Source: Trichaptum fuscoviolaceum (Eukaryota; Basidiomycota; Agaricomycetes; Hymenochaetales; Trichaptaceae). From it: DNA of 64,000 nt. The notes beneath the pieces were generated by a model. It saw nothing but the letters and a program-made list of their open reading frames with translations. It was not told the DNA's origin and ran no database searches. The stretch is from the NCBI GenBank assembly GCA_910574455.1, contig CAJSYZ010000006.1, forward strand, positions 434,001 through 498,000. The letters run 5' to 3'. Of the stretch, positions 18,878 to 58,423 are shown piece by piece. The position numbers and the translations under genes are program-made. The stretch's first letter is position 1, and each line of letters opens with the position of its first letter.

Positions 18878-18900
18878 CATCAGGGAAACTACTTTCTGCT
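18878..18900 (+). repeat. Left terminal inverted repeat of the large element
   Basis: Identical, in inverse orientation, to 39021-39043, and identical to 55112-55134. Similarity fades within about 10 bp beyond it, as expected of a transposon terminus. Confidence 0.6.
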
Positions 18901-19472
18901 GAAAGTGACTTAAGCGTTACTTAAACGTCCTGAGTGACTTGAAGTCTGAATAAGGCAAACCGCACTTATTCATGCATGTCCTCCCATTATTCAGGACCAG
19001 TTGGCTGAAATAAGGGCGAGTTGGCTGAATCAGTGCTCTAAGTGTTTCAGGCAATCTGTACCCCAGTGCTCCAGTGCTTCAGTGCTTCATCCTTTAATTA
19101 CAGCAGGAGACAAGTGTTGTAAGACAAACTGCAGTGCTCAAGAGTTCAAGTGCATAAGAACGATCCAAGTATTTCATTGCATCAGAAGTAATATAAGACA
19201 ACGGTAAGTAGCTATCAGTGCCTCAGCGTTCAAGTACATCAGTCATTTACACAAGACTAAGCATAGCAGTCACTATCATGGAACCCGCCACGACACGATT
19301 CTGAACCACTGCCACGGGCAGTGGCAGGCCCATTTCGCTACCGTGCCTTCAATTCTGCATGTTCTTTGGCGTGCCAGTAGAAACGAAGGCTGCTCTGCGA
19401 GTCGATGGTAATAAGTTATTGAGCGCACGGACAGAGACGAAACGAAGAGGCTCACCAGTGAACGATTTGCCC

Positions 19473-22400
19473 TTAGAAGTCTACGCAGTCCGTGGCCGAA
19501 TCCCATTTTGAAGCGTCGTCCTCCTCATTATCGCCATCTCCGCCTGGATCCTTCTCCGCGCCCTCGTCCGCGCCCTCGTCCTCGTCCTCGTCCGCGCCCG
19601 CGCCCTCGTCCGCGCCCTCGTCCTCGTCCGCGCCCTCGTCCTCGTCCGCGCCCTCGTCCTCGTCCGCGCCCTCGTCCTCGTCCGCGCCCTCGTCCTCGCC
19701 CTCGCCCTCAATCTTGTCAGCGCCCTCGTACCCGCTCTCACTCAGGTCGTCATCTCCTTTAGCATCGGCATCCTCGTCCTCTGCATCACCTTCAACATCG
19801 CTTCTATGCTCAGCTCCTTCACGCTCGTCGCCCTTATCATCGCTCCCGTCTTCCCAATTACCAGCGCCTTCGTCATACGCTTTCTCGCAGGTCGAATCTG
19901 CATCTACGATGTCAAAGTACAAGGAAAAGTCCCTGCCAGTGATACCCGATCCAACAAGTTCGGTGTTCTTTCTCGTATCGATATCTGTACTGGCATCGTA
20001 AGCTAGGAGGCGGGATCGAACCTTTTCCCAGTTTGATTCAGTGAAGAAAGAGGGATTCGACAACAAGTTAACATAGTCGTCCGTATGAGGCTGCCACAGA
20101 GCGCTAGTGAAATACCACTCAGCGCCGCCAAGTTCTTCTTTGATATTTTGCAACCGAGCCACCTGTTTATCAATGGCAACCTTGACCTATCCATGAGAAG
20201 ATCAGCGAATAAGGACAATATAAGTACTGAAAAAAATAGATACCGCTGTTGCCGCAAGGGCGAGGGCACCGATAGGCTTTCCTATGGTGTTTCTGTCCAG
20301 TATTTTATGCCGACCCATGGCCAATACAATGTGTACGGACAACACTGAGACCACAAGGTCAGAGCAGAACAGTCCTTGCTTCTGTACATTTAGGGTCAAT
20401 ACATGGACACAAAATGCGACAATAAATACTCTTTTACTTACCCTCTCCATACTATACCAGCTTTCCCATAGAAACGGTTCGGCTTTCTTCTTATCAACTA
20501 GCGTCTGCAACGTCTTCACAATTGCTTCGTTTTGCATTGACTTTGATTGTTCGCTGCTGATAAAACTCGCAACTGAATGCTCAGCTTTCTCAAACAGTTT
20601 CTTGCGCCAGCTATCAGAGCATCTCTGGGCCGCCTGAAATACAAGGATTGCATCTCAATCTGGTAAAGGTAACTTGAAGATAACTAAGAATGACTCAACT
20701 AGAGAACAGATGTCGGCGAACTGTGTTTCGTAACTTAGTTCCACAGAATCAAACACTTTCCCCCACAGTGTGCTGATGAACTCATTGTCCGGGTTTTGCC
20801 ATGGCGTGATGGACTTTCCCACTGCGCGAAATAGTGAAGGTAATAAAATATGAGTCCAACCGGCCTGAGTACCGGGAGGGAGACACTGGTTCGTCGCCCT
20901 TTTTCTGCCTGGCACGCGAGTCCTTCCTTTCCTTCATTTCGGCCCTTGTCCTCCAGCCCCACTGATGTCTGCATATAAGTGAATCAGCAAAAATATGTCA
21001 TAGAAATGAATTTGATTCGACACACTGAGCTAGTAGTCCGAGAGACTTTGCGATGACCAGGATAAGCCCCAGTCACTAACACTTCGGGTCCGGGAGTGCA
21101 GGATACTCTCGTCATTGCAAGCGACTGTGTTCGGGGTGCTAACGGCATCTTTCGACCACCGGTCTAATAAGAATAGTGAGTGAATGCTCATATTCAGAGT
21201 GTATCAATCGACCCACACTTGCTTCATTATCAGCCACCAGCGACTGCCTCTTGCGATGTGAGGTAGCGGATCCAATCTCAGACTGCAACACGTCAGAAAG
21301 CTGTTATCCATGGCAAGTGAGCAGCTCGAAAGGAAGCAATTACCGTCGTGTCGGCCACAGGCCGATAAGGAGTGTCAGAGGGTTTCCTCTTCTTACTCAA
21401 ATCCTTTTCGCCCGGTCAGAAACGAACTTAAAATGCCGGCTACCAAAGAATTGACACTTACTGTGGCACCGACCTGTGTGTCCATGCCAGTCAACAATGA
21501 CTTCTTGACCTTGACACTCTTACTAGCCTATTGAGATGGTGTAAAGTAAGTAAACATAAACATGAAGGAATCCATTACACGTGAAGGTGGAAGAATTACC
21601 ACATCAACCTGGCAGTCAATGTCCGGTGGCGACTTTCTCTTTCTGTTTTTTGTGACTATGATGTCCTATTTATAGGCACAAATTAGTGATCAACCCGATG
21701 TGAGGAAGGGAACGAACAGTTGCTACAGCGGAAGTGAGCCTACGGTGCATCGACGCCCACACATACCTGTATACGGGGTTCCAAGGCTAGTGAATGCACC
21801 TTACAACCATAAATCAGGGGGAAACGAGAGAAACTGGATTAAGATGGGACTTACCGGTGCGCTGAGCTGCGAATTGGCAGTTCTCTTGTTTGCATCCTGT
21901 CCAAAGATCAATTCAGCAAGCAATGAAGGAAGGATGTAGCATGAGGATCACTGTGCTTCACTGTCTGGCACTCACCTGTCCACCTGGTTTTGTCTCGTTG
22001 TTCTTATCCTCAAGTACGGAAAGGGATTGGTTAGTAGATTGGAAAAGGTAGGAATGATATGACGTCGCTTACCGTTGAAACCTGCGACCCGGAGAGAGTG
22101 TCGCGCAGCAACTTCCTTTTCTTTGAGTTCAAGTTGCTGCTACCTCCATCCTGTTCATTACACGACAGTTGGCAGAAAAATAATAACAAAGGGATATGAT
22201 CAAACGGTCATGGGGTAACTGACGTGAATCGAACAGTAATAAGTCACACTCACACTAGCTTGAGCCGGCCTTGTCAGCCTCCTCGGATCGCTTTCGCCCT
22301 ACAAGCAAGGTATTCAGACTGCATCTGCCATTCTAATGTTCCGTCAACTCACAATATTTGTGTCCGAATCGACAAAATGTGCTGTCTGTTGCACGCTGAT

Positions 22401-23763
22401 TGAGCTATTCTTTACACCATGATAGCTTGCGAGGGTTATTGTTTCTCCTTCATCCTCCCAAGGACTTAAGTTTTCATTGTCTTGCAATGAGATGCTGTGT
22501 CTAGTGTAGCTTGGCGTCAGCAAAGCTCATAATATGGTAACAAAGACGAGAGTGTCATCGTTGTAGGTAGAAGGAAATTTGATCCCGTTGTCGGAGCGTC
22601 ATGATCCGCTTCTTTAGCATGAACATTAGTAATCTAGTTGCCAGTGGATCAAACTATGAGCTTTAGCTGAGTCAAATCAAGCTTCACACTTACCATTACA
22701 TCGTGCATTCCAGAAATTGATCCCGTACGCATTGCAAGATTTCAAATTTAAACTCACAAATTGATCCCTCTCGAGTCTATCCCAGCCACCTCAAGTCCTC
22801 CATCCTCTTCACCAATGAAAGTGGATTCATCTGTGTTGCGAAGCGCCCTGGCAGGTCGCTTTGTCTTGTCGTCCCGCTTTGACGTAGCGGGCGAGTCTAT
22901 TATATCCGTTTCTTCACCAGAAAGGCTCTCGTTCTGTCCGGCAGGTGCGTGAAAGAAAATGTTGCTTGGAGTGGCGGCAGATCTCGACGTCTTTGCGGTC
23001 TGCACACGGGTGCGAAATGGAAGTTCACCTTTGGGATCTTCTTTCCTAGCCTTTTTTGCAGGCTTTCTGTTTGACGCATCCGTACTCGCCGCTTCATATT
23101 GTGAGTCAAAGTAGTCAACCTCCAAGCTTCGAAAACATCTGAAAATGTATAGGCAGTATAACTCACCAATGTCTAAGTCTTCGTTGTATTCAACTTCACA
23201 ACCCGACACGTCTTTAACATCGTTCTTCGAGCCTGCTTACGCCAGTTCAAAGCTATGTAATTACTGATCTGAGGTTGAAGACTTACTACTAGCTTCGCCC
23301 TTCGGCTTCCTACATCCACGTTTTCCAGCGAGTTTAGGCACTGTTGAGCCCATCTGGGTGCGTGTCTCAAGAGCCTTCGACAAATTGTTTTCAATTTCTA
23401 CGGTCTCTAGCATCGCTGCTTCTTGGTTTTCTGCTGCAGTCACCTTCTTTCGTACCTTGTCAGCTGCCTCTTGTTCTTTTGCTGCCCGTTTCTGCTCCGC
23501 AGCGAGTTTTTTTCCTCTCTTTCGCGACCGCGACTTGCTGGGCCGCAGCTCTGCGGAAAGCTGCCCGTTCTTCCTTCTGTTTTTCCTTCTCCTCCTTCTC
23601 CTTCAATGCCTCATCCCGCCTCGCTGCCTGCTGTACTTTCCTTTTGTCTTTTTCTTCCTTCTCCCGCAATATCTCCTCCTTTGTTCGTCTTGTTCTGAGT
23701 TGGTCAACTACTGCTCCGGGGTGCTGGTTATTGTTCTTAGCCCTCGTCTGTCTTCGAGTTTGA
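19473..23763 (-). pseudogene. DUF6532-like protein gene, frameshifted
   Basis: Reading leftwards from 23763: an N-terminal NNNQHPGAVVDQLRTRRTKEE motif, then a Lys/Glu-rich coiled coil (KEKEEKEKQKEERAAFRRAA). A Ser-rich middle (around 22754-23209) follows, then many short exons between 22750 and 20900, and a helical C-terminal region with KPIGALALAATAV and WYFTSALW. The end is a long acidic tail. This layout resembles, from memory, basidiomycete DUF6532 proteins, an unknown family often found among repeats. Two breaks are visible. The only nearby ATG (about 23769) is one base out of frame with the conserved N terminus. An A7 run at about 23508-23514 also shifts the frame, where six As would restore AAEQKRAAKEQ. 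It lies head to head with the transposase. Function unknown. Confidence 0.5.
19553..19712. repeat. GC-rich minisatellite inside coding tail
   Basis: An 18-nt unit close to GCCCTCGTCCTCGTCCGC is repeated, encoding on the minus strand DEGADE units (EDEGADEDEGADEDEGA). It adds an acidic tail to the DUF6532-like product. On the plus strand it would read Pro/Arg dipeptides, which I treat as a shadow. Confidence 0.85.
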
Positions 23764-23869
23764 CATTTTGTGCAGTGTTTTGAGACTTGGGTGATAATAA
23801 GATGGATCGAAGGTGCTAGTTCAAGATCAGGGAGGCGGGGGCGTCTATCTTAGACAACTTGAAGTTGAA

Positions 23870-24100
23870 AATTTACGCCCACTCACTCACTGGCAGGCTG
23901 CCACTGGCCAGGCTGCCACAGTGTGTGACTTACTACTACTACTAGTAGTAGTACTAGTACTAGTACTCACTGGCACTCAGGCTGGCACTGCACTCAGGCT
24001 GGCAGCCTTACCGGCGTACTACCAGTAGTACTAGTAGTACTATGACTAATTTAAACTCAGGTTCAAGTTCACTCACTGCCAGCCTGCTGGCACTCAGCTG
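23870..24100. repeat. Palindrome-rich bidirectional promoter region
   Basis: Contains CACTGGCAGGCTGCCACTGG, TACTACTACTAGTAGTAGTA with ACTAGTACTAGTACT, a second ACTAGTAGTAC array and CTCACTGCCAGCCTGC. It separates the divergent DUF6532-like and transposase genes by under 400 bp and probably holds both promoters. These words recur in all other non-coding parts of the element, so they may also be transposase-binding sites. Confidence 0.6.
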
Positions 24101-24141
24101 TGAGTCCCAATCATCGACATGTACTACTGAAGGTTACATTG

Positions 24142-27100
24142 ATGCCAGCGACACGGAAAAAGCACGATCCCCTTCATTTTCCACCAACTATTCGATGCAC
24201 CTTGCCCAGCTGTAGTAGGACGTTCAAGAGTCAATCTGGAAGAGCAAGACATGAATATTCAGCTCATCCGATGTCATCCGTGGCAAGATCTACTGCCTGT
24301 GGTCACGACTACTATGATCCTTCACCTATTCGACCCACACGAGCTCCAACTCCTCAACCTCTACCGAGGTCGTCCGAACTTCCAACAGAGGGTCATTTTG
24401 AGAGCGGCCCTGACTCCTACGATTACGATATTTCCATGCTTACACAGGATATCTCGATGCTCAGTATAGGCCGAGACGAGCTGCTTCAAGACCTAGACAG
24501 ACCTGATTCTCTGTCCCATTCTGGCACCGGAAGTGACAGTGGCCGTAGTGCATCCTCTGAAGATTTGGACTTCGACGTTGGAGATCATGAGGAGAGTGAT
24601 GGTGACCTAAAGGTGTATCACAGATATATGAATGGTGCGCACCAAGTATATTGTCCTCGGTTTGATAGCACTCTGATGAAAAACATCGTGCAGCCACCCC
24701 GTGTGATGCGGAAGGAAACAACTTAGAAAACGACGAACCACCTGTTCCGCGAAATGAACCTGCACCAAATGACTGGTCTCCCTATTTGTGCCGAGCAGAT
24801 TTTGAGCTCGCAGACTTTCTTTATCGCGATGAGCAAATGTCTGCTGGTAATATAACAAAGCTTCTCGGAATCATGAAGGCTTACCAGCGAATTCAGTCTG
24901 TGAAGAACGCGAAATCTGGCGGATATTCTGAGTTGGACGTAACTAAGCCCGACGATGACTCAGATCTGGATCCCACTAGTACGCTACTCGATGGAGACGC
25001 ACAAAAGTTGTACAATGTCATTGACGCTACGAGAGTTGGTGATGTGCCTTGGAAATCCTTTAGTAACTTCTACACGGACAACAATGGCCAAAAAGCGACA
25101 GACGAGAACACCGAGTCATGGAAGAGGAAAGGATATGATGTATGGTATCGGGATCCCTTGGAAGTGATCCGAAATTTGGTGGATAATACGGCTTTAGAAG
25201 GCGAATTCGACTATGTCCCATTTCGTGAATATCAGCCAAAGGAGGAATCTGATGACATCAATGACAAAGAACGAGTGTTCAGAAATTACATGTCCGGAAA
25301 TTTTGCTTGGGAACAGGCTGTAGGTCATGACTCATGAACTCGCAGGAAACATACTGATTATCCTTGACTTAGAATAAGATCTACGCCGAAGATAAAGCAG
25401 TCCATGGATCTATGTTCGTTCCGGTGATCTTGGGGAGCGACAAGACAACAGTTTCCGTTGGAACTGGCAACAACAAATATTATCCGTTATATCTCTCAAT
25501 AGGAAATGTATCAAACAAGGCCCGGCGGTCCCAAAAGTTGAATACAGTCCAGCTTGTAGCATTTTTAGCAATACCAAAGAGTGTGTGTCAAAAACTGAGC
25601 CATTCAATTGTGTTTTGACGCTTTTTTGCAGCTGAGCGACAGTACGAAAAGTCAGATGACTTCCGTCGCTTTAGACATCAAATTTTTCATTCATCTATAT
25701 CGAGAATCTTGAGTTCACTGAAGACCGCCATGTCCATAAACAATGAACAGACCATTCTCCGGTGCCCTGATGGTCACTTGCGTAGGTCGGTTCTCGGACT
25801 CGGCTCGTATATAGCCGATTATCCGGAACAGGTGAGTCTATGCGCAATATGCACTGGATGGTGCTGCAAGTAAGTACCATCCTTTCCAAAATCGCATAGG
25901 AGTCTGAGGAAATGGCTTACGGTGGCTATATAGATGCACAGCTCCCCACAAGGACCTAGATAATCCGGAGTTTGCATCAAATCCTCGAACAAAAGAGCTA
26001 CACGAACGATTGATAGAGCAGGTAAATGACAACAACTTAACCAGAGCAACAATTCGCAAAGAGTATGGGTTCCACCAAGATATCGTGGTATGTGCTCCAA
26101 ATTCTCCATTGGATGCGCTTCTAAGAACTATGTTTTCCCGTAGCCCTTCACCAATGACTTTCCGCGCGCAGATATATGCAATCTCATTTCTCCGGACCTA
26201 TTGCACCAAATCATCAAAGGTGTTTTCAAGGATCATCTTGTCGAGTGGATATGCCAGAGCTTGACCACAACAGAGCTGGATATTGTGGATAAAAGGTGCC
26301 ATTCTCAAACAATTTGTATAATATGAATACTATCGCTGACCTCCGCGTAGAATCAGAGTCGCTGCTCCTTTTCCTGGACTACGTAGATTCCCCGAAGGCC
26401 GAGGCTTCAAGCAATGGACAGGCAATGATTCAAAGGCACTTATGAAAGTATGTGATTTTTCCTTCTTGTTTGAGGCGGTCGTTTGCTGATAGTAGTCGAT
26501 GTAAACCGCTTAGGTGTATCTTCCGGCTATTGTGGGCATTGTGCAGGATGATATAATTCATGCATTGAGTGCATTTCTCGACTTCTGTTATCTTGTGCGT
26601 CGGTACACGATTACAGCCTCAACACTTGATCAGATCAAAGCCTCTCTGGATTGCTTTCATCAATATCGGCAAATATTCATAGCTATGGGTATCCGGGACA
26701 ACTTCTCACTACCACGACAGCATGCCATGGTCCACTATCCTACAATGATTCCTCTGTTCGCTGCACCGAGTGGACTATGTTCATCGATCACAGAGAATAA
26801 GCACATTTACGCGGTCAAGGAAACATGGCGACGCTCAAACAAAAATGATCCCTTGGGTCAGATGATCACAGCAAACCAACGACTCAGTAAACTTATTGCA
26901 TCAAGGGCAGACTTCAAAAGGCGTGGAATGCTGGATGATACGTTAGCCGAGGCTTCGTGGAGAGCTTTGCGAGATGTTTTGCGCAAGAATATGTCGTCAG
27001 AGTCAGAGTCGGATGACGCTGAGAGGGACCCTGATGCCAGTGGGGGAGAGCAGATGCAACAACGTGATGTATTAGTAGTAGGTGAAGCTGATGATACAGA

Positions 27101-28148
27101 TGACTTCTTCGATGCCATTGTGGGTATTCAAGAGCTCAACGAAATTGCAGATTTGGACGATTCCGAAAGTTTAATAGATGAGCCACAGCGTGGTGCGGTT
27201 CATGGCGTAGGAAATGCTGAACGCCAGCTCCGCTTGGGTGGCGGGAATGACCCTTTGAGCTTTACGTTAATGGCTTCGAAAAAACGTTAGTGAAACATCC
27301 TTTTGGTGCTGCAAATCCAACTTGTTTATTGTTATCCTTGCAGAGTCCAGTAAAGTGTACCCTAAACAGCTCGATGCTCTCGCGGCAATAGAAGGCTATC
27401 CAGAACTTCGACAACTCCGACAACTCATCAAGAAACACTTATTCAACAAGTACGAAAGTTGTAACACCAACTCAAAGTGTTCTGCTACTACTAGTAGTAG
27501 CAGGCAAGCCAAATTAAACTACAACGGATTTGAACACTATAAACTGGATATTAGCAATGACTTTTTCAATTTTCCATTCAGCCACCGCGTTCTTTGCGTA
27601 TCGTGGTGAATCGATCCCTATAGAACAAGCAATGAGGGAGGTGATCAGGTCCAGTCCCTCTTGGCGCGGAAAACCTCGACGAGATGCAGTTCTTGTCCGA
27701 GGTGGTTCCCGCAAACAGGGGTTCGCAGGAATGAGAGTTGCCAGGGTTATACTTTTTTTCTCATTCACCGTTAAAGTGGAACGTCAGGAATGCGCTCTCG
27801 TCCAGTTTTTCAAGCGTGTTGGAGAATCGCCCGACCCGAAAACAAGAATGTGGATAGTTGAACCAGCATATGAGTTGGAGAGCTCTACCGCCTGTGTCGG
27901 ACGCTGTCCCGGAGTGAATGACAGTGGCAGACATCACTATCACCGTGACTGCAAGGCTCCGAAGCTGTCTGTGATAGATATAGGGGACATCTTTCGTTTA
28001 GCTCACCTCCTTGGGGTCCCGAAGGGTGACGAATCTCCTCCGAAGTCATTGACACCTGAGGAAATCCCTGGACTTTTACGATAGATTCTACGTTAACAGA
28101 TTTGCTGACATGCACATGCACGAAACATTGTACGAAACTAGACAATGA
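24142..28148 (+). CDS. Plavaka-type transposase (C-terminal frameshift)
   Basis: The N terminus has a C2H2 finger (CTLPSC..FKSQSGRARHEYSAH). Intron 24635-24693 joins to PCDAEGNN and DWSPYLCRADFELADFLY. Then come AEDKAVHGSMFVPVILGSDK, YYPLYLSIGN, CPDGHLRRSVLGLGSYIADY, a Cys cluster (CAICTGWCCKCTAPH), DICNLISPDLLHQIIKGVFK and HAMVHYPTMIPLFAAPSG. This series is diagnostic, from memory, of Plavaka transposases (CACTA-like DDE superfamily, common in basidiomycetes). The C-terminal domain includes PSWRGKPRRDAVLV and ARVILFFSF. Near 28050-28082 the frame breaks: one frame ends at 28084, while the conserved end FYVNRFADMHMHE lies one frame over, stopping at 28148. The catalytic part looks intact; the tail break may be real or an error. 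Confidence 0.75.
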
Positions 28149-28159
28149 TTACTACTAAC

Positions 28160-28590
28160 TTGAAGTAAAGCTTTTCAATTAGCATACACAACCTTGAATG
28201 TACTATATTGAAACTTACGAGTGAGGACTCGGATATGGCAATGAAACAAAAGGATGTACTAGACGAAACAGACCTTAGTACTACGTATGTAACGTAGTAC
28301 TACACTGGCATTGCAGCATTGGCTCTTAAAGACTAGTAGTACCATGACACTGTTTTAACTTCAACTTCAAGTTATGGTGTTCTTGGCTTGCTTTCAAGTT
28401 GTACAGTATACTACTAGTGGTACACTGGCAATGATATCATGGCAGTAGTATTTCATTCAGGTTGGTCAAGGCAATGTTATTATCAGCAAATCACAAAGCG
28501 ACACAAGGAAAAACTGTAGACACTAGCATAGCGCAAAGATTACATGGGAACTCCAAGTCATAGCTTCACCTCCGAGTCCAGCTCTGCCCC
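28160..28590. repeat. Repeat-word spacer between transposase and RS-rich gene
   Basis: About 430 bp between two convergent genes, rich in CACTGGCA, ACTAGTAGTAC and AACTTCAACTTCAAG words. No coding signal. Confidence 0.5.
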
Positions 28591-28597
28591 GCAACAG

Positions 28598-31010
28598 CTA
28601 GTTGTGGTGACTGTTTCTATTAGAAGACCTTTCTTCCTGCTTGCCATTAGGAAGATACATCGGTGTGCAAATATCCTCAGGCTTTCGGTTCATCACTTCG
28701 CTTAGATAATCGCGATACTGTGAGTTGTAGATCTCTCCCGGTGATAAACTCGTCCTGGCAGTCGAAGCCCCGGCCGTAACCCTCGCTCCGGGTGGTATAT
28801 CGTTACATATCTCGAGCACCGTTGCTATCAGTTGGTCTTGAAATTTATCATAGCGGGTACTATTGTGGGTATCCTTCAAGTCTACGTAAGCCGTGAACTT
28901 CTCAATAGAGTCAAGGACTGCGTCAGTCCTCTCCTCCCGAGCATGTATGATATCGTTCATTATGTAGCGGATTGAACAGGATAGCTGGTTACCCATGACT
29001 GTGTGGAAAAGATCCTCGTTGAGGACTATTTGCAACCACCTCTTGACGATTTAAAACCATGTATCAACTCCCGCTGAATCCTTTCCAAACGACGGACATC
29101 TCGTAAGTCGAGTTTGTTCAAAAAATCAGCGAAAGAGGGATTAGGCCCCAAGGCCTTCAAGGTCCTTTTCATGTCTTCAACAGATTTGATGCGAAGGTCG
29201 TCGGCCATAACAAAGTTCGGCACTTCTTCACCGTTATGGAGTGCGCGGACCTTGTCCCAAAGTGTGAGCGCCAGTCTCCGTCCAATCTCCGAGTCTTTAA
29301 AGACTAGATGCTTGTGAACGTCAGGCTGAGGGCGTACCTGAGGCAATCCCCCAAACAGTTGGACCGCAGGCGTTACGAAAGTTCCTGGGTTGTCCACCGT
29401 CATTGAGTAGAGCCTTTCCTGTGCATTGGGCTTGAAATTAAACTGAAGAGCTGCCGATTGTTGGAGGAGTTTGTCAATTTCTACGATGAAATCGTAAAGT
29501 GCGTTGTAATGGAGCTGGAAATATGGTAGAAAGAACCGGAAAGCAGTTAATTTGTTCACCTGAGATGCGTCGAATGGCAGGTTTTGACGTTGCCGAGCTT
29601 CACGATTCAGGATAAATTTGACATGTGGTGGGTCTTTTACCACAGTGTAGGATATTTCTTCCGGTTCCGGGGAACGACTCGAAGTCGGAGGTGGCAAGTA
29701 AACTCGAAGGTATCGGTTAAAGTGTTCATGCATGACGACAGACAATGTCTTAAAGTTGGCGGCAAAGTAATTGAGAGTGCCGGGAACAGAATTATGTGAG
29801 TACTTGGTTCTCAGTATCTCCTCGCCAGTGAAATCAAGGACAATTGCACAGCCTTCCCGGAGGTAGGTCAGTAGATTATCTGTAAGCTTCCTCATTCTTA
29901 CAGCGTCGCCTGCTTGCCGTGACTAACAAGGGTATGTTTTTAGATGTCACTCTTTTTAGAAATGTGATCATGTTACTTACCCCAGACATTTTGTCTTCCA
30001 CGAGATCGATTGACGCTGATACGTCATTTAAAGTATCTGCAACGTTCTTCTGGACTCCTTCCATCACGGCAAACCTCTTCTCCAAATCCGTAACTCGAGC
30101 CCTCAATTCATTGGAATCCTTTTTATGAAATTCCTCCCATTTTTTCAGCTTCTTGGTCAAGTCCTGCAGCTGCTTGACTCCTGCATTTGGATTGTATAAG
30201 GGCGCGAGCTCAGAGGGGGTTGGCGAATGAGATGAACTCTTTGGGATCAAGTGAGCCGATTCGATGTTTTCTGTGCCAGTGAAGGGTTAGCTTTGGACAC
30301 AGACTATGATAGAAAAGGGAGGAAGAATGCGTTACCTTCGCTTGGATCGACGTTATCAACTTGAGAATCCGATACTCCAATTGCCGGCGAACTGCGCATA
30401 GATTTTTGGGCAGCAGACACTTTAGAACGCAAATCCGACAACATGTCATTTGGAGTACTACATGGGCTGCGGCTGAATCGAGGCCGAGGAGTAGGTGAAG
30501 GGGTTGAAGGGTTGAGGACGCTAATTTGAAGAACCCTCTTATTTGGAATAGTCGGATCGTTCTGCGCGACGTCCCGCCTCTGAGTCTCCCCTCGATAGCC
30601 ATTGGCGCCAAAGTATGTTCCAAGTTCTTCACGCGGGTTATAACTGTTGTGTACGTGTTGTGCGCTGCCTCTATAGTCGCGGTTCGAGCCCGCAGGGTAT
30701 GAAGAGCTGGTCCTGTCTTGGTATTGCCCACTGGCGCTGGTAAGGCTCGGCCCCGGAGTGCTCGTGAGACTGTGCTCATAAAGTCTCCGTTTATTACTTC
30801 TGTTCTTGCTGTGCCAGCCCTTCTGTGAATACGGCGGTGAATAGGAACGTTCACGGCCCTTCGAGTACCGATTACGACTGGAACGATGCTCCGACTCGGA
30901 TTCGGATTCTTCGAAATAATTGTCAGAACCGGCGAGGGGTCCGACTCAAACTCAGGCTCACCTTCACTTTTCGGGCTGCGCTGACGCTTCTTACTATTGT
31001 ATGATGGCAT
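28598..31010 (-). CDS. Arg/Ser-rich coiled-coil protein, probably frameshifted
   Basis: The start at 31010 gives a basic N terminus (MPSYNSKKRQRSPKSE). An intron at 30909-30961, with a CTGAC branch point, joins to ESESESEHRSSRNRYSKGRE. A longer open frame that skips this splice exists but gives no consistent protein. An intron at 30271-30335 joins in phase to a heptad-like segment (LQDLTKKLKKWEEFHKKDSN..LEKRFAVMEGV). The next large exon (29026-29895) encodes LREGCAIVLDFTGEEIL and many Leu/Phe-rich helices. The final part (IVKRWLQIVLNEDLFHTVMGN to 28598) is reached only by a one-base shift in a TTTAAA run near 29055. A similar one-base problem occurs at the 29900 junction. I do not recognise the family. 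It sits in the element, convergent with the transposase. Confidence 0.45.
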
Positions 31011-31019
31011 AACTGCAAA

Positions 31020-32240
31020 CTGGAGGAGTCTCAGGCTTGCCGTGAGTAGTGATGCGAATATTAGTAATAGTAGTGGTAGTGGTAGTAGTGGTACTACCTC
31101 ACGCGGAAGTTCGGTAGCGAGTAGTAGTACTAAGTAGTAGTAGCGAACTTGAAGCGGATCAGGCTCACGCTCGGCCTGAGGCTGTAGCCTGAGTGGTTCT
31201 AATCGGTAGAGCTACTACTAGTAGTACTAGAAGTACAAGCTTGAAGATCTCAGTTAGTGGATGAAGTAGATCTAGAAGGCTGAAAGCTCACTCACCACCA
31301 GTGCCAGCAGTCTACAAGTAGGATGAAATTCAGGTGGACTTCAGGATGAGAGGGCTTCAAGCTGTTGATGTGTGAAGTTGAAGAACAAGCCTAAGTACTA
31401 GACTCGGGCACAACACGTCGCTCAGGCTCACTGGGGTGCAACGTCAAGTTGTGGGCATGGGGTACTCAGGCTACTAAATTCGGAACTTGAACTTGAACTA
31501 GTTGAAAGTCCGACGGCTCGGAGTGGAAACGCTACTAGTACCTCAGGCTGCCACGTACTACTGCCGTGACTCCCGGGCCGTCGGAGTCGGACATCATGAT
31601 CACTGCAACTCACTGGCAGGCTGAATGATCCGACTCGGAGTTGGCATTCAAGTTGCGCGCGCCGACAACTTCAACTTGAAATTGAACTTGAATGCCACTG
31701 GCATGCCAGTGATGTTTGGCGACTACTACTACCTACTATTAGTACTCACTGGCAGGGTACCGTACTACTACTAGCCACTGGCAGCTGAATGATCCAGTCT
31801 TAAGCAGCTTAAGCTTCCAGTTCTGTCCACTCAGACTGGCAAGTTGTCACAATCTCAACTTTACTACTACTACTAGTAGTAGTATACGGTTCGAGTCCGA
31901 GTTCGAGTCCGAGTCCGAGTCCGAGCCTGAGTTCAAGGCCGGACACCGGACCTGAGTGAGCTTGAAGGCTGGCCCAGCACTGGTGAGTGGCACTCAGGCT
32001 GTCCGGCCGGCGTGACGGCGGTACTTCAAGTTCAAGTTCAAGTTCAAGTTCAAGTTCAAGTTGGAGCCTCAGGCTGAGTCGGAGTCGGGTCAGAGTTCAA
32101 CTTGAAGTTGACTCGTCATCAATTCAAGAACTTCAAGTTGAAGCTGAGCCGAGCCTCCTCCGACTTGGACTCGGAGTCTCACAGGCTTCAAGTTACTACT
32201 GCTCTACGCCCCGACTCGTGAATGCCACCAACTAGAACTG
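31020..32240. repeat. Cluster of short tandem and palindromic words
   Basis: Non-coding 1.2 kb made almost wholly of a few words: TAGTAGTGGTAG runs near 31060-31140, CTACTACTAGTAGTACTAG near 31212, (GAGTCC) repeats near 31888-31925, (TTCAAG) repeats near 32022-32064, and many CACTGGCA/TGCCAGTG and TCAGGCTG words. The part right of 31698 is mirrored in the right arm. It may be a transposase-binding or heterochromatin-forming segment; that is inference. Confidence 0.6.
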
Positions 32241-32568
32241 AGGTTACTACTACAAGAGGTAGTAGGCCTTTCGTTTCACTGTTGAGTTTGCTGTGTATAC
32301 TCTCTTTTTTCTTCCGCCGCGCATCTGCCGACTCACTCACTCTGCCTGTCTCAGCATGCTCAAATTGTTCTATCGGTTTCAACGCCTTGCGCAGCTCACG
32401 TACGTCTGCACGATACTTTTGTAGCTCCCTGTGGGTCGACGCGTTTCGGCTCGTTCGGCACGGCTCGTATGGAAACCCAGGGGGTAGGAGTTCGACCGCT
32501 TTTGCAGAGGACACGAAACCACTACCGTCTACGCAATTTACTGCGCCCACAGCAGGTGGTTGCCCCAA
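32188..32568 (-). CDS. Small charged open frame, doubtful
   Basis: Translation includes THRELQKYRADVRELRKALK and a Lys-rich segment, suggesting a short helix. It is identical in the right arm (61582-61962), but that only reflects the recent duplication. No family recognised; the opposite strand is also open. Confidence 0.2.
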   Translation of the reverse strand: MGQPPAVGAVNCVDGSGFVSSAKAVELLPPGFPYEPCRTSRNASTHRELQKYRADVRELRKALKPIEQFEHAETGRVSESADARRKKKESIHSKLNSETKGLLPLVVVTSVLVGGIHESGRRAVVT

Positions 32569-32739
32569 GTCTTGCCCCAGGCTTCTCTCGCAAATTTATC
32601 CCGACGCGTATCCCCTTACCGACTAAAGCAATGGCGAGCACACTGGGGCGCATGCGCACACGTCTACCTCCACAGTTGACAACACGAATTCCTTCAGCAA
32701 TTGGTGATGGTAGAGTGATTACATCCGTCACCATATATC

Positions 32740-33330
32740 ATGAGTGAACCTTCTCCAATGGATAGAGCTACGCCAGAGAGCTCATCATCAGTGGTGGCTG
32801 ATGAGTGCAGGACGTTAAAACTGGTTGCTGCACTTGCATCCGAGGTCTGTTCCTCCCAGGTTTTGAATCGCGAGACGCATCACCGACGTTTGGAATGTGC
32901 AAAGAGGCAAGTTACTGAACCGGCGCTCACAGGCACCAGGAGGGGATGTGCGTGCGGTAATCAGTGAGCGAAAGCTTCTACTGTACTTCTCGAGTAAGTT
33001 GTTCTTTTATTTTTTGAATCATAATACTCACAGGCTTCTTCAGCTTTGGAGCATCGGCACGGGGAATGTCCATATGTTCTCCGAGAAAATCTGCATAAGA
33101 TTTACGCCGAAAATTGTATTGTCTTTTTTCTTGGGCGTGGGGGATTGGACACATCCGTTCGCGTATGGAATCTGCAAATGGGTATGATTTTCTTCACATT
33201 CATTCATCCCCGACTCGTCAGTGACAACTTTTCAGTACGACTCCGACTTTCTTGTCACCGGAAGGAACGATGGCCGCGTCAGCTTCTTCTCGTTTCATCG
33301 TTCCTCTTTTCCTCGACCATCTCCAGCTCA
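32740..33330 (+). pseudogene. WD40-repeat relic, left arm
   Basis: Across two frames the translation gives WD40-like strings: LLQLWSIGTGNVHMFSEK and RFTPKIV in one, DTSVRVWNLQMG in another. After a GTATGA..TTTCAG intron comes YDSDFLVTGRNDGRVSFF. Blade-like spacing and WSIGTG/WNLQMG ends support WD40 origin. Frame changes show that it no longer encodes a continuous protein. About one and a half repeats remain. Confidence 0.4.
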
Positions 33331-34335
33331 ACAATAAGCGGCCACAGGACTTGCACTGAGCAGTCAGGGGACGAGTCTCTATCCCTACCGTCTACACTCA
33401 CCTCAGGGATCCCTGCTCAATCGACATCTAAGCCTAAGTTCGCCTGGCCTGAGCGGCGAAAGAGCCCAAAAACATGGGAAGGATGCTGAACAGCTACGCT
33501 CTCTCAACACATACAACAGTGAGGAGAGAAAAGTTGCGAAGTTGCGCGGTCGGATTCGTATATACGGGGCTATGTATCACCGGGCAGTTTGATGCGTCCC
33601 AATATTCCGCTTGCATGCACAAAGTCCACCAGACGTCGACAAAGCGACTCACAACTCAATTTGCAAATGCAGCGAAGGGAATGATTATAACTGCATTTTC
33701 GACATCATCCAAGTTGTCGTGTCCCCATTCCTTGCCAAACACCTCTGCCCCGCCACCATTGCCGCCTAAATGGAGAACGCTCGGTTTCAATGTGCAGTAT
33801 GAGTTGATCGTCGGCCGACAGCGCGATTCCCTCAGCTCCGAGGACGAGAAACGCGCCTTCATGCAAATTACTCCTTCCGAAGCAGGTTGGGATGCATTCA
33901 AGTTCAAGTTGGCCCATTTCCCATTTTGGCACGGTTCTAGTTCAAGTTTCGGGTTGAGTACAGGGATGACTGGTTGTATGGTGAGTTACTCGTGGCTTTC
34001 TTCGAAATCCTTCTAGAGCTGATGGAGCAGCTTCTTGTGCAGTGGGTTGTATCCTCCCGACGACTTCTTCGGAGTTAACATGACTCATTTTCTTGTTCGT
34101 TTGTGCTTAAAATGAAAAGAAGCCTTATAATCAAGTCATCCGGAAGAAATCATTTGTTATCTCCTATCAGTTCAACTTGCGGTTTATCCAAGTCATAGTA
34201 CAAAGCACTAATAGCTCCCTCTCTCTTTCTAGAAGAATGGGAAATCAGAAAACTGACTTCAACTACTTTGTATAAGTGTGAAGTGGGAGCGGGTATCGTC
34301 CCCAAGATCATCATCCAGCCATTCCACCGTGAATC

Positions 34336-35377
34336 ATGTTCTCAAATCTTCGTACTATCCTTCTCATCCTCCTCTCCCTTGATTATGCACGCCTGCACCT
34401 CCGCACCGTCCTCCGCTTTCAGCTCGTTCAACGCTGGACAGCAAGGGCTCAAACGAAGGTACTTGTTTCATTCATATCAAGATCTGTACACTGACTTGTT
34501 GCTAGATACACAAGAAACTGCAAACGTTTCTTGATTTCCTCGGGGTACCACCAACACCTCTCTCCGAATTAGATGAATATAGGCCCCATAATATAGTTCC
34601 GATACAGTGTTGCACGGGCTTGGATGTGGACAACGCAATGACTGCAATATATGCATCTTTGCCACAGGTACCAGCTAGGAGATTTGTCTCGATCGACATC
34701 GAGTGGGCAAGTGGCGGAAAAGGGTCCAATCATCGCGTAGACCTCATCCAACTCGCAGTTCAAAACCAGGTTTATCTGGTCAGGACGCATACTCTTACTG
34801 ACCTTCCTCCTACGTTGGCGCAACTCCTTGGGGATGGTACAGTCATGAAAGTTTCAGCTGGAATCAACGGTATGAATAACTTATCTTTTCTCCTGCGAGG
34901 TGGCCAACCAGAAGAAATGGCAGGTGACGCAGTGCGTATAAAGCGCAAGTTTTGCACCTCTGTGCGCTCCTGTGTCGATCTGACAGATTGGGCGCGCGTT
35001 GTCTACCCGGAAGTCTGGCCCAAAAACCCGACCTGGTCCCAACTGCTCTTAAACCCTCGTCTCTGGTTCCAGCATCCGACTCCGACTGTCAAGCTCGAAA
35101 AAATAGTGGGAGAAGTATTGAGGCTGAACGTCAAGAAGAGTAGTGAGGTCACGATGAGTGACTGGGCAGCTAACGAGCTATCAGCGGCACAAATACAATG
35201 TAAGTTATCATTTTGTTGCTCAAGATCAACCATCTTCAAGTTCTCACTTGCATGATCTGCTGTACTGGAATACTAGATGCTGCCATTGATGTTCACAGCA
35301 CGTTTGCTGTAGCTTTGGCCCTGAGCCAAAGCCACCCACCCTTACCGGATAAGTACATCAAGAACTTCGAGGCTTGA
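34336..35377 (+). CDS. DEDDy 3'-5' exonuclease, WRN/RNase D-like (intact copy)
   Basis: Four exons (34336-34458, 34506-34869, 34924-35199, 35277-35377) give 287 residues with every splice in phase. Motif I is FVSIDIEW (Asp and Glu). Intron 34870-34923 is needed to form motif II, KVSAGINGDAVRI, with its Asp. SCVDLTDWAR and KLEKIVGEVL follow, then motif III YAAIDVHSTFAV (Tyr and Asp) after the last intron. All DEDDy catalytic positions are present. The N terminus is a short hydrophobic segment (LRTILLILLSL) followed by a basic helix. It is a stand-alone nuclease domain with no helicase. It lies inside the transposon cargo next to the glucan-synthase fragment. It may trim DNA ends during transposition or simply be captured. 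Unlike its neighbours, it shows no break. Confidence 0.75.
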
Positions 35378-35671
35378 TCTAGTAGGCTGAGGCCCACCAG
35401 TAGCAGGTTTGACCAAATGTGCTTGAGTTATCGAGTAAATTGTTGTGCACATGCTCTTGTCTTTCAAAGTTGCCAGGAGATTCATGATTAAAATTTATTA
35501 TTGAATTGCTTTTTTTTCCCGAATGATCACCGTAGTCTGAGGTATCAAAGTGGTTTGGAAGATGTCGCCAATGGTGTCTGTCTGCTGTGAGCAACCCAAT
35601 GGATTAAATAGTTTTCAACACCACTATTAGTGCTTTTTCAAGACACTTCAAAGTTTTCAAGACAATTCAAT

Positions 35672-35728
35672 ATAACGCCCGGACGGGCCAGCTTTTTGCT
35701 GGCGATACCCGAACACCTCTGGGCGTTA
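35672..35728 (-). ncRNA. Conserved stem-loop element, copy B (left arm)
   Basis: On the minus strand: TAACGCCC ... GGGCGTTA closing stem enclosing GCCAGC-AAAAA-GCTGGC and a CCC..GGG hairpin. Related to 5338-5392, identical to 58424-58479. Confidence 0.35.
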
Positions 35729-35856
35729 AGTAATCACAAGCTACATATTTTACCCAAGCGGTGCAGCAACTATTTTTCCTCCAATAGTAGTACTATGTCA
35801 GTGGCAGATTTGTCTGCTCTGATGCATTATATTATTATTTATTATATAGTCCAGTG

Positions 35857-38730
35857 TCAGAGCCAGCTTGTCCCCGTCAGGCTTCGCAATAACCTTCCGT
35901 ACTCGCATTCCGCGCGCGCAAAGTAGTCCTCGCCTTCGGATACATCAGAGCTTGCTGAACCACGCCTTTCTAATTTCAAAGTGCGAGGAGGGAGCAGATG
36001 CTGCTCCAGAGGCACGAGTGTCGAATGGCTCCAAGCTCCAGGAGATCCAGTGATCGAGTTGTGTGGGCTGTCGTATGTGCTTCGGGTATCCCAGTTGGGT
36101 TGCGTCGGTTCTTCCCGATGTTCAGCTTCACCATCAGAAGGTCTCCATGCTAAAGAGCCCGTGATCTGACGACTAGTAAAGTTAATGCTACGCTTGTGGA
36201 AGTCTCCCATGCGCTGACGCCATTCAACAACCGGGAAACGCTGAACAGCCGAACGAGCACGCAAGATAGCATGTTCTTCTTCCGTAGACTTAAGCGCCAT
36301 TTTTATTGTTTTCGTAAGCTGGGACAACATGTGTGCTGTTGAACTCGATTCGACAGGGAACCACTGTGTTCAAAGTCAGATTGCAAAACATTAGAAAAAA
36401 CGAATGCAAACTTACCCAACCAGGCATGAGACCGAGACCACCGTATGGAGGCGAAGTAGTGAACTCTGGCTTTGAGTACACTCGGTTCGGGTACATCTCC
36501 ATGAGACGAGCAAGCTTCTCCGCAGCGAAACGTCCATACAAGTCAATGACAGGCCCGACACAATTCAACTGAATCGAAGGGTGTTTTTCCAGTCTGGCAT
36601 TAATAAATGAGCAAACATTCATTTACTTAGCAAAATAGGATTAAGAAATAACTTACAGCGAAGGCATCATGTCTGCAATAAGATCTACACCCTTTTGCTT
36701 CAACCAACAACCAATGAACACGAATAGATCTGCCTAAGGATCCTGTGCAATACCAGCCCACTCCTGAGCCTGCTGCTTGAACTCCGTACATTTCGCCTCT
36801 GCTTCCTCATCAATCTGAATGTCCTTGATTTGAACAGGCTGTTCGTCCAAAGCAGCAATAACCGTTGGGTCCGGATTCGGGAGCGAGTCGACATGCTTGA
36901 GTGTCCAAAGCGCCGGGTAACGCGCCCACGACCGTTTACCATACTGTCAGAGACACCAGCGACACCGATCGATTTCTGGTGCACATTGATGAAGGATGCT
37001 GCGGCGTGGAGCAAGTTGAACGTGTTTCCGAACTGAACGAACGTGCTCCTTGCTGATATTGAACACCGAGCACACTTCCTTCATCTCCTCCTTCGTGCGG
37101 AGTGGCCACAACCCCTGGAGCTCCGCATTGTGGAGAGACAGACAGATGGGGAGGACCTTCGGGAGCAGATAGATAGGTGCGAGCGCACTGTGGTAGTCAT
37201 TAATGTGGTAGATATCAATCTGCGGGTAGCACCTAACGGTTGCTGCGATAGCCTGGTTCCATGTCGAGTAGAAGATAGCTGAGCTGATATCGTCATGCGC
37301 GCATGATACGGGTCCGCCTTTGTTTGTGCGCGGAAGACAGGCAAGTCGAGGACGATGTACGTGATGTTGTCGAGGACATGCGTCTCAACCTCGATAAGGT
37401 ACGGGTCGCCGAAGATAATGACTTCGATAGGTTCTGCAGGTTCGCCAGCAGGGTACTCAATGTCTTTAACCTTTGGTACAACCTAAATCAGGTCGATATC
37501 CGACATTGCCTTGCCCATCAAATCACACCAAGACCACCGATCTTGACCTTCAACTTCCAATATGATCTCGTACTCCAAAGTCGCAATGAGCATGGTCCTC
37601 CGCTTATTCTTGTCTTCCGGCCAGCCAATGATGTCGCCTGTATGCGCGTGTCCATGGCTCGAGTGTTTCTCCGACATCGGCGCCACATGCAGGTCTTGCG
37701 CAGACTTCGAGCCCAGCGAGCCAATGACGGGGAAATTGTGCGAATGATCCGGCTTCTTTTCCGTGAGACCCCACTGGTTGTACTTGATCCCGTAGAAGCT
37801 CCACATGAAGATCGCCACTGCCAATGTACCAGTGACAACCGGGATCGACAGGAGCAGCGCGTACATGATAGCGCCCACAGTGCTCTCCCCACGCGGCTCG
37901 AGGCTCCACCGCATCGTCGCGTCATCTACGACCAGCGTACAACGCGAGATGCGGGTGCGGCGGAGCACTGACGTTCAAGTAGTTGGGCGCAGCCAAGTTG
38001 GGCGGGAGGCGGTCATGACGCCGTTGCCGTCCGTGTCACCGTAGAAGTAGTCATCGAAGCCAAAAACGTTGAGCTGTAGGTACGTCGGCCATGTACTCAT
38101 AATTTCGAGCTCCCAGCGTCCGTCGGCGGTATTGTCCATCTGGAAGCTCACTCCTCTGTGGAAAACCCCAGGTATTGAACGGACCACGAGCAAGGAACTG
38201 AGGAACACGGCACTGATGAGCATAGTTCCTGTCCGCATGTACAACAGTATAGGATGATGCAGCAATAGCAGACCAGCCTATTGCAAAATTGATTAGCAGA
38301 TCACAGCACATACTAGTATAAGAGTAAGAGCACTTACATTGCACAATAATATGCTCGCCCGCCCACCAATTCTCATCATTGTCAAACAAGCTTTTATCTA
38401 TGCTCGTCACATCCTCATACGCCGTCCACGTCGTCCAGTTTTGACCATAATTCCACAAGAACCTGAACATATCTGCGCCCAGCGCCTGGTGCGTGAACGT
38501 GTACTTCCCAGAACCCGAGTCCAAGCCGAACGCATCGTTGTCGTAGTCCGCAGAGGGGAAGATCATAGGATTGCGCGCGGAGCCCTTGCGCACAAGGAGA
38601 TGGTCGCGTGCATTCGTGAACGAAGTGCCGTCCTGCGAAGGCGGGTTGTTCACAATGATGTCGATGATTCCGTCCGACGCGTTAGGAATCTCCGCACGCA
38701 AGGCAGTCCACAAGCCCAGTTTGATTTCCG
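35857..38730 (-). pseudogene. ags1: Alpha-1,3-glucan synthase internal fragment, left arm
   Basis: Reading leftwards from 38730, the translation follows the central part of fungal alpha-1,3-glucan synthase. Segments include LLVRKGSARNPMIFPSADYD, YTVVHADRNYAHQCRVPQFL and WPTYLQLNVFGFDDYFYGDT. A membrane-spanning stretch (AIMYALLLSIPVVTGTLAVA) comes next. The start of the GT5 synthase domain follows ([43 protein letters not shown]). Later come [28 protein letters not shown] and a C-terminal linker. Introns are kept, so capture was at DNA level. About 38 codons are missing near 36441, between FTTSPPY and GGLGLMPGW; these normally hold the catalytic SRDEPFG..EFG segment. Several frameshifts and a stop are present. 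It cannot encode an active enzyme. Confidence 0.85.
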
Positions 38731-39020
38731 TCTAATTTGAACATGGATGGTGGAGGAAGAGGCAATTGGCATTGCCGCACTTCAAGTTTTCTCAACTGGT
38801 TTCCTAATTCAAGTTTAGATGTAACAAAAATCGTAAAAATTTTCCAAGTCCCATGTTACTTGAGCACTGAAATCCTGACTTGCATTCTGATGTACTGAGA
38901 GATGGCTTGCATCCTGAAACACTCTTTATTTCAGTGAGTTAAGGCAATCAGTGTATTTTCAGACGAAGTAGCGACCCTTCAGACAGGTGCCAGCCAAATC
39001 AGGACGCGTCAGTCGCCGTA

Positions 39021-39043
39021 AGCAGAAAGTAGTTTCCCTGATG
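39021..39043 (-). repeat. Right terminal inverted repeat of the large element
   Basis: Perfect inverted match to 18878-18900 and exact inner end of the left arm. Sequence beyond 39043 shows no match to that beyond 55112. Confidence 0.6.
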
Positions 39044-39373
39044 CATCATCATGCGTACCGGAATGAGTCTTAAAAGAAGATTGCAAGATCAAATTCACAT
39101 TGCAACTATTAGGTACGATGCAATGCTCGAGAGAACAGATTGCATAGCATATCAAAGCTTGCGGTCATCGGTATCGAAAGTAGGACGGGAATCACCCTGT
39201 AGTCCGTGAAAGCCGCATCGCAATAATACATATGTTCTCCTAGCACCACATTATTCTTCGTTTTGGTATCATTTTTTTTATTGAAATATATGCACATTCG
39301 GGCAAGGGTACCGTATCCCAGTCAACGAAGTTTCCGGTTGAGAAAACAAATAACAGTTGATGCAGACGAGAGC

Positions 39374-40533: not shown

Positions 40534-40592
40534 TGTTGTTTAGACTACTTGAGGACTGTGGTCTGGGTGATAACTTCGGAGATTCTTGCTCG

Positions 40593-40600
40593 TTTTATAG
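40593..40600 (-). promoter_or_regulatory. TATA box of thaumatin-like gene 1
   Basis: CTATAAAA on the minus strand, about 60 bp upstream of the start at 40533; the paralogue has a TATA-like box at the same distance. Confidence 0.5.
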
Positions 40601-40879
40601 CGATAGTCTTGATCTTAGTTTTCCCATTGCAAGAGAGAAGTATCCGCAAGGCGATGAACTGCGATGGAGACCATGCGTACATGTTGTATCATGCGCCCAT
40701 ATCACAGCGAATCACGATCTGCCGAGATACACAGCGATCCTCAGTCCGAGTGTCCAGCGCAGAACACGACTCAGAATAGCAGGACGTCGGCTCTACGGAG
40801 CTAAACAAGCGAGAAAGCTTCTGCCACCAAAGCATGAGTACGTCATTGATGAGAATTGCCATACATGGGGTTTCTTGTT

Positions 40880-42450: not shown

Positions 42451-42724
42451 CCATATCTGGAAGACGTCGGAAATGTCAAAGTCTGCCATAGCTGCAGGGA
42501 AAAAGCAGTCGACCATGAGATACGATAGAAACACCATTGTATGTATCTTGTAGATAACTGTAATCGTATAGATGGTAGCGATAGGACAAGAGTCAAGCCC
42601 AACTGAATCTATGGTATTATCTCTCAACTTTCGCTCAAGTTCTCACGATGCCAACGGACCGGGAGCAACCATGATTTTCAATTCCTGCTTTCAACCTCCA
42701 CCACCGCACGTCTCTGCTAGTTCA

Positions 42725-43325: not shown

Positions 43326-43329
43326 TAGC

Positions 43330-47792: not shown

Positions 47793-47844
47793 TGGTGTTT
47801 GAGCTCCAGTTGAGGATGGTGATTTGGCCAACGAAGCAAGTTGC

Positions 47845-47852
47845 CTTTATAT
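47845..47852 (-). promoter_or_regulatory. TATA box of thaumatin-like gene 2
   Basis: ATATAAAG on the minus strand, about 55 bp upstream of 47792, matching the placement in gene 1. Confidence 0.45.
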
Positions 47853-47859
47853 CTGTGAA

Positions 47860-49290: not shown

Positions 49291-49292
49291 AT

Positions 49293-53211: not shown

Positions 53212-53214
53212 TGT

Positions 53215-58297: not shown

Positions 58298-58423
58298 CAC
58301 TGGACTATATAATAAAATAATATAATGCATCAGAGCAGACAAATCTGCCACTGACATAGTACTACTATTGGAGGAAAAATAGTTGCTGCACCGCTTGGGT
58401 AAAATATGTAGCTTGTGATTACT

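What the first reader, a model, noticed from the sequence alone, without database searches (positions are those of the whole stretch)
18878..39043. Candidate 20-kb cargo-carrying Plavaka transposon with 23-bp perfect termini
A perfect 23-bp inverted repeat sits 20.2 kb apart and frames a transposase, three further gene types and captured host DNA. The same terminus starts the right arm at 55112, and homology stops exactly there. If correct, this is a very large DNA transposon of a CACTA-like group with multi-gene cargo, and a second copy lies head to head 16 kb away. No target duplication was found and element-like words also occur at 18595-18640, so the boundary is not proven.
Basis: partly seen in the sequence, partly recalled or inferred. 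Interest (0 to 1): 0.8.

Follow-up and report, generated by a model that had tools for sequence, protein, structure and literature searches.

The report
20-kb Plavaka transposon in many copies
A fungal genome carries about thirty closely similar copies of a 20,000-letter jumping gene that brings along several extra genes and a broken piece of a host gene, and two neighbouring copies seem to have flipped the DNA between them.

Summary
The 23-bp perfect termini at 18878 and 39043 bound a real mobile unit. The genome (59.1 Mb, 12 contigs) holds 40 matching left and 34 matching right ends; they form 31 pairs, 17 of them 20,037-20,214 bp long. Of 29 pairs outside the window, 28 carry an exact 2-bp target duplication; shuffled pairings average 4.2. 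Five copies compared are 99.63-99.94% identical. Termini CATCA..TGATG, the duplication and a complete Plavaka transposase domain (E=5.9e-116) fit PlavakaB. Inside are an accessory gene under purifying selection, an unknown gene, a DEDDy 3'-5' exonuclease gene and a frame-broken fragment of a glycosyltransferase gene. The neighbouring copy is complete, 21,635 bp, with a nested 1.5-kb insertion. Neither window copy has its own target duplication, but exchanging flanks gives AA/AA and CA/CA. The 16-kb spacer was therefore probably inverted by recombination between the copies; an assembly flip is the rival. Large multi-gene CACTA relatives are reported elsewhere, so this is a new variant of a known kind.

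The parts
18878..39043 (+). Plavaka element, copy 1 (20,166 bp)
   Evidence: Perfect 23-bp TIRs; 17 of 31 genome-wide end pairs are 20,037-20,214 bp, and in all 17 the transposase and exonuclease segments sit within 160 bp of the distances in copy 1; 5 of 31 copies compared, 99.63-99.94% identical
18878..18900 (+). left terminal inverted repeat
   Evidence: 40 left ends match a 67-mer, all with 0 mismatches
39021..39043 (-). right terminal inverted repeat
   Evidence: 33 right ends perfect over 39 bp, one more with 1 mismatch, among 231 hits with up to 3
19473..23491 (-). accessory gene, protein with a charged, coiled-coil-like N-terminal part and an acidic C-terminal part (by eye); weak DUF6532 similarity below cut-off; exon model approximate
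   Evidence: gene model; DUF6532 E=0.0011, 19.4 bits against a cut-off of 24; dN/dS 0.15-0.31 over 191 codons at its 3' end against 6 sister-family copies
24042..28084 (+). Plavaka transposase, 11-exon model, 1,143 aa, N-terminal C2H2-like finger; D413, D522, C537/C540, H741/H745, E765
   Evidence: PF18759 E=5.9e-116 over 4-325 of 325; residues in the 27-sequence alignment
28598..30908 (-). gene of unknown function; this copy has a frame-changing indel that the 4 other copies examined lack
   Evidence: one relative (94% identity over 62% of the query) among the 7,998 best candidates scored from a database of 5.8 billion
34336..35377 (+). 3'-5' exonuclease gene (exons 34336-34458, 34506-34869, 34924-35199, 35277-35377; 287 aa), DEDDy residues present
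   Evidence: PF01612 E=4.1e-12, 46.7 bits against a cut-off of 23.6, for a 305-aa model that still holds the 54-nt intron 34870-34923; P0003, 288 aa, reads continuously across the splice junctions and lacks that intron; 222 genome candidates, 40 scored, 96-100% identical
35857..38731 (-). captured, frame-broken fragment of a glycosyltransferase-5 gene (alpha-1,3-glucan synthase type; that name is recognition from memory)
   Evidence: 88% identical to the gene in L094 (C1:4173000-4180000), which has PF08323 E=1.8e-15; 9 frame-changing indels and 2 stops in the alignment of one exon
39044..55111 (.). 16-kb spacer between the two copies, probably inverted; holds a G-alpha-like ORF and a 1,029-aa ORF
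   Evidence: flank exchange gives matching 2-bp flanks at both; G-alpha E=6.9e-7 but 29.2 bits, below the Pfam cut-off of 48.8; ORFs
55112..64000 (-). right part of copy 2, which continues beyond the window to C6:510746 (21,635 bp in all)
62351..63882 (.). 1,532-bp element nested in copy 2, with short imperfect terminal inverted repeats and a 10-bp target duplication

Best explanation
The segment 18878-39043 is one recently transposed copy of a PlavakaB-type (CACTA/CMCT clade) DNA transposon about 20.1 kb long that encodes its own transposase. Inferred mechanism: the DDE transposase recognises the short TIRs, moves the whole 20-kb unit by cut-and-paste into loosely specific sites and leaves a 2-bp target duplication; copy number rises by repair of the donor gap or by movement during replication. 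It carries three further genes, one of them a DEDDy exonuclease. It once picked up a piece of a glycosyltransferase gene beside its right end; that piece is now frame-broken but is copied along. Copies 1 and 2, head to head, later recombined with each other and inverted the 16 kb between them.
For: Shown: 31 left/right end pairs, 17 of them 20,037-20,214 bp. The transposase segment lies inside 31 of 31 pairs and the exonuclease segment inside 30 of 31; in 13 of the 14 longer pairs the extra length could be located in one or two of the intervals between ends, transposase and exonuclease, as nested insertions would do; in the 14th only the left-end-to-transposase interval could be measured, and it is normal. 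Exact 2-bp duplication in 28 of 29 pairs outside the window, 16 of 16 of the 20-kb size; 2,000 shuffled pairings: mean 4.2, maximum 11. Five copies 99.63-99.94% identical. Complete PF18759 domain; D, D, CxxC, HxxxH, E conserved with 26 relatives. Inversion: after I expected copy 2's unseen left flank to end in CA (reasoned, not noted in the notebook), and it does. Host-derived part.
Against: One pair of 29 (C3:2393675-2426875) has no duplication. With the splice model fitted to copy 1, the transposase is open only there; the 4 other copies examined stop at codons 126, 630, 42 and 990, through small indels or a mis-specified exon, so activity is not shown and read errors are not excluded. Nine left ends and 3 right ends have no partner. 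The flank-exchange match would arise by chance with a probability of about 0.02 (0.145 squared, from the shuffled rate). No transposition was observed. That the exonuclease or the unknown genes take part in transposition is inference.
Confidence: 0.9

Rival explanations
1. The missing target duplications at the two window copies are an assembly flip of the 16-kb spacer between two inverted 20-kb repeats, not a real inversion.
For: The two copies are 99.91% identical over about 20 kb, so reads shorter than the repeat cannot fix the orientation; the flank data fit equally well.
Against: The assembly is near chromosome scale (12 contigs for 59.1 Mb), and 28 of 29 other copies have matching flanks; neither speaks directly to this spacer.
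Confidence: 0.35
2. The core transposon is smaller and the 20-kb span is a composite of a short Plavaka element plus neighbouring repeats that happen to sit together.
For: A sister family shares a left end and the exonuclease segment also occurs beside a different right end, so the parts are modular.
Against: The same order and 20.0-20.2 kb length at 17 sites, with target duplications outside the outer termini at all 16 tested; no further terminus with up to 2 mismatches inside the span.
Confidence: 0.03
3. The unit is a segmental duplication or part of a Starship-like tyrosine-recombinase element.
For: Large size and multi-gene content.
Against: Left ends lie on 10 of 12 contigs with 2-bp duplications and TIRs; the transposase is PF18759, and no tyrosine-recombinase domain showed in the 20 of 22 ORFs of at least 150 aa and the gene models scanned.
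Confidence: 0.01

Closest known systems
PlavakaB families (Kojima 2025, PMC12730594; abstract, section 3.2.2 and found passages read)
   Different: The extra gene described there is a TET/JBP dioxygenase; none was found in the ORFs scanned here, and 'exonuclease' does not occur in that paper's main text. Lengths of published families could not be read, because supplements were out of reach.
Enlarged 16-20 kb En/Spm (CACTA) families of the red alga Chondrus crispus (cited in PMC6431247, passage read)
   Different: Red alga, not fungus; neither transposase nor genes compared here
Gene-fragment capture by Pack-MULEs and Helitrons (PMC6431247 passages), and by plant CACTA elements (recalled)
   Same: A non-functional host gene fragment lies inside the termini and is amplified
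   Different: Here it sits in an element that also has a full transposase domain and accessory genes
Starships (Pezizomycotina giant elements; search listing and abstract start only, PMC12134995)
   Same: Large fungal elements with extra genes
   Different: Tyrosine recombinase, Ascomycota; no TIR/2-bp duplication of this kind (recalled)

Membership tests
Plavaka (PF18759) | Plavaka transposase domain | tested here: met
   E=5.9e-116, profile 4-325 of 325; 2,417 relatives with E<=0.001 among 7,992 candidates scored, 44-54% identity among the 120 listed
Plavaka (PF18759) | DDE catalytic residues with C(2)C and H(3-4)H before the E | tested here: met
   D413, D522, C537, C540 invariant and H741, H745, E765 at least 90% conserved in 27 sequences (26 of the 120 listed relatives chosen by me); which residues are catalytic is my assignment by the spacing given in Kojima 2025
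PlavakaB | termini 5'-CATCA..TGATG-3' | tested here: met
PlavakaB | 2- or 3-bp target site duplication | tested here: met
   2 bp in 28 of 29 pairs; 3 bp in 0 of 29. The two window copies lack one individually
PlavakaB | transposase falls in the PlavakaB branch of the CMCT tree | not tested
   reference sequences not at hand
TET+ Plavaka | TET/JBP dioxygenase gene | tested here: not met
   No such Pfam domain in 20 of the 22 ORFs of at least 150 aa or in the gene models scanned; short exons and distant PE-type proteins could be missed
Starship | tyrosine recombinase 'captain' gene | tested here: not met
   no such domain in the scanned ORFs and models; same limits
DEDDy 3'-5' exonuclease (PF01612) | domain and Exo I (DxE), Exo II (D), Exo III (YxxxD) residues | tested here: met
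   E=4.1e-12; by sequence PDB hits are weak, best 8.6e-05, including EXD2 and WRN; SIDIEW, INGDAV, YAAID once the 54-nt intron absent from P0003 is left out; motif names recalled; activity not tested

The most novel reading that the evidence does not exclude
The exonuclease and the two unknown genes are a transposition module: an end-processing or gap-repair helper set that lets a Plavaka transposase mobilise a 20-kb unit at high copy number, a helper architecture I have not seen described for CACTA-like elements. The exonuclease is present in at least two subfamilies with different right ends.
Probability: 0.3. Interest if true: 0.65.

Novelty: new variant of a known kind. Interest (0 to 1): 0.52.

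Why it matters
Plavaka elements are common in mushroom genomes (for example 28 families in Agaricus bisporus, PMC7473861, passage) but little described: 11 papers of the library name them. This family gives a complete anatomy with firm boundaries, about thirty copies and multi-gene content including an exonuclease, so questions about size limits, helper genes and gene capture in CACTA-like transposons become testable in one genome. The pair in the window also gives a signature (exchanged target duplications) by which transposon-mediated inversions could be sought genome-wide.

Tried and rejected
Sister families: 24 of the distinct left-end sites fetched belong to a diverged family (27 loci, 3 of them second copies of the same site); in the comparison with one of them the homology starts within 5 bp of the terminus in every case. 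70 right ends belong to another family.

Selection on the captured glycosyltransferase fragment: a naive dN/dS of 0.28 between two element lineages suggested constraint, but a control that keeps base types and CpG context gave P=0.06 and 0.08, so I do not claim constraint. The intact-looking gene in L094 is not the direct donor: dS about 0.43. The donor was not found; four loci at 85-88% are known, one of which was read.

Structure prediction: the models for P0001 and for P0003 with P0004 had a mean pLDDT of 37 and were not used. Pfam on the spliced model of the broken fragment gave nothing. Paper searches: Plavaka with cargo (0 papers), Plavaka (11 papers, 10 listed), large basidiomycete transposons, gene capture, KDZ (68 papers, 15 listed), glucan synthase, EnSpm in Chondrus. 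I noticed no description of this element in those listings; the library lacks most subscription papers.

Full report
What was claimed and what is there. The window (C6:434001-498000 of a 59.1-Mb, 12-contig genome) contains a perfect 23-bp inverted repeat at 18878 and 39043. The same terminus occurs at 55112, where the homology of the second copy starts exactly. In the whole genome the first 15 bases occur 292 times and the reversed control 0 times.

Boundaries and copies. A 67-base left-end pattern finds 40 left ends, all without mismatch though 3 were allowed. A 39-base right-end pattern finds 33 perfect right ends and one with one mismatch, among 231 hits with up to three. Pairing the 40 left with these 34 right ends within 80 kb gives 31 pairs: 17 are 20,037-20,214 bp long, 14 are longer, and 9 left and 3 right ends stay single. 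In all 17 the transposase and exonuclease segments stand within 160 bp of their distances in the window copy. In 13 of the 14 longer pairs the surplus falls into one or two of the intervals between the ends and these segments while the rest keep their length; in the last (C7) the exonuclease segment was not in the capped list, so only the left interval could be checked, and it is normal. Nested insertions into a core of about 20.1 kb explain this. Flanks were read for all 29 pairs outside the window: 28 have an exact 2-bp duplication, none 3 bp; all 16 of the 20-kb size have it. 2,000 shuffled pairings give 4.2 on average, at most 11. The exception is the 33-kb pair on C3.

Age. Five of the 31 copies were read in full or nearly so (one lacks the outermost 57 bases of its left end) and are 99.63-99.94% identical. 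The burst is recent.

The window pair. Copy 1 is flanked by AA on the left and CA on the right, copy 2 by CA and AA, so neither has its own duplication. If the spacer 39044-55111 is turned round, both have one (AA/AA and CA/CA). From the three flanks seen I expected CA at the fourth before fetching it (my reasoning then, not entered in the notebook); searches show it. By the shuffled rate (0.145 per pair) two matches by chance have a probability of about 0.02. I therefore prefer an inversion by recombination between head-to-head copies, but two inverted 20-kb repeats at 99.91% identity can also mislead an assembler.

Genes. The transposase (24042-28084, + strand) matches PF18759 over the whole profile. 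In an alignment with 26 relatives, D413, D522, C537 and C540 are invariant and H741, H745 and E765 are at least 90% conserved, the layout that Kojima 2025 gives for this clade. The listed relatives that bear organism names are mushroom-forming fungi as far as I recognise them, at 44-54% identity. On the left lies a gene on the - strand; 191 codons at its 3' end compared with 6 of the 24 fetched sister-family sites give dN/dS 0.15-0.31 (one of the six has a stop; no base-composition control was run for this test), so it looks like a maintained gene of these transposons. Gene 28598-30908 (- strand) has one relative at 94% and no Pfam domain above cut-off. The exonuclease gene (34336-35377, + strand) first scored weakly; with the 3' intron placed it reaches E=4.1e-12. 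The protein P0003 from a JGI contig reads continuously over the splice junctions and lacks a further 54-nt intron, whose removal places an Asp at Exo II. The same segment occurs near the other right-end type: 8 of the 40 scored matches, seven at 96% and one at 98%, by coordinates. The stretch 31.3-34.3 kb shows no convincing gene.

Captured DNA. The 2.9 kb beside the right end (35857-38731, - strand) match a gene on C1 (L094) at 88%. That gene has a starch-synthase-type catalytic domain (PF08323, E=1.8e-15) and a long, hydrophobic C-terminal ORF; the name alpha-1,3-glucan synthase is my recognition, not a database label. The element's fragment shares with a truncated older arm on C3 (L095) the loss of about 572 bp that L094 has, so it was probably captured once. 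In the alignment of one exon it has 9 frame-changing indels and 2 stops. A dS of about 0.43 to L094 says that L094 is not the direct donor. A spectrum-controlled test finds no significant constraint after capture.

Mechanism. Shown: a 20-kb unit with fixed ends stands at many sites with a 2-bp duplication. Established knowledge: DDE transposases of the CACTA/CMCT clade act on such TIRs. Inferred: the element's own transposase does this here, and copy number rises through gap repair or replication timing. Against full autonomy of single copies: under a splice model fitted to copy 1, the four other copies examined show frame breaks in the transposase, and copy 1 itself has a frame-changing indel in the unknown gene; some of these may be sequencing or model errors.

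Known or new. By termini, target duplication and transposase domain it fits PlavakaB; the tree test was not run. Size and gene number have a precedent in 16-20 kb CACTA families of a red alga (PMC6431247, passage). I found no description of an exonuclease-bearing, 20-kb mushroom Plavaka in the listings; that is a weak negative, because supplements and subscription papers were not read. Verdict: new variant of a known kind.

On recounting I replaced a partial statement on the longer pairs, corrected the sister-family site count (27 loci, 24 sites), the ORFs scanned (20 of 22) and the exonuclease neighbours (8, not 7).

Noticed in passing
window 62351-63882: A 1,532-bp element with short imperfect TIRs (AGGGCATGACACGGGTGCA / AGAGCATGACACGGGTGCA) and a 10-bp target duplication is nested in copy 2; it contains repeated CAGGTACCTG-like motifs.
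   Followed up: partly
genome; right ends of the TTTTTGCTTAAGG type: 70 right ends of a sister family, 65 of them identical over 64 bp, point to another very recent burst; their left ends were not found.
   Followed up: partly
genome; PF18759 matches: 834 first-look candidates (123 scored) and 165 matches in several groups; the 58 top-scoring rows form one group, and the rows I compared by eye lie about 6.4 kb from sister-family left ends.
   Followed up: partly
window 19549-19739: A tandem repeat coding an acidic stretch; the exon that holds it differs in length between copies (-72 to +18 bp).
   Followed up: no
window 1093-2426 and 6167-7492: Two pairs of 300-nt direct repeats about 5.07 kb apart, 78-80% identical, probably a tandem gene duplication.
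   Followed up: no
L095 (C3:4053500-4058600): A right arm without a left end within 80 kb, with an older copy of the captured fragment; beyond it lies an ORF that resembles the TFIIF alpha subunit (recognised from memory; Pfam found nothing in the piece scanned).
   Followed up: partly
C3:2393675-2426875: The only pair of 29 without a 2-bp duplication; possibly another rearranged copy.
   Followed up: no
C3:4500428 and C3:4500437: A left end of this family and a sister-type right end stand back to back with 8 bp between them.
   Followed up: no
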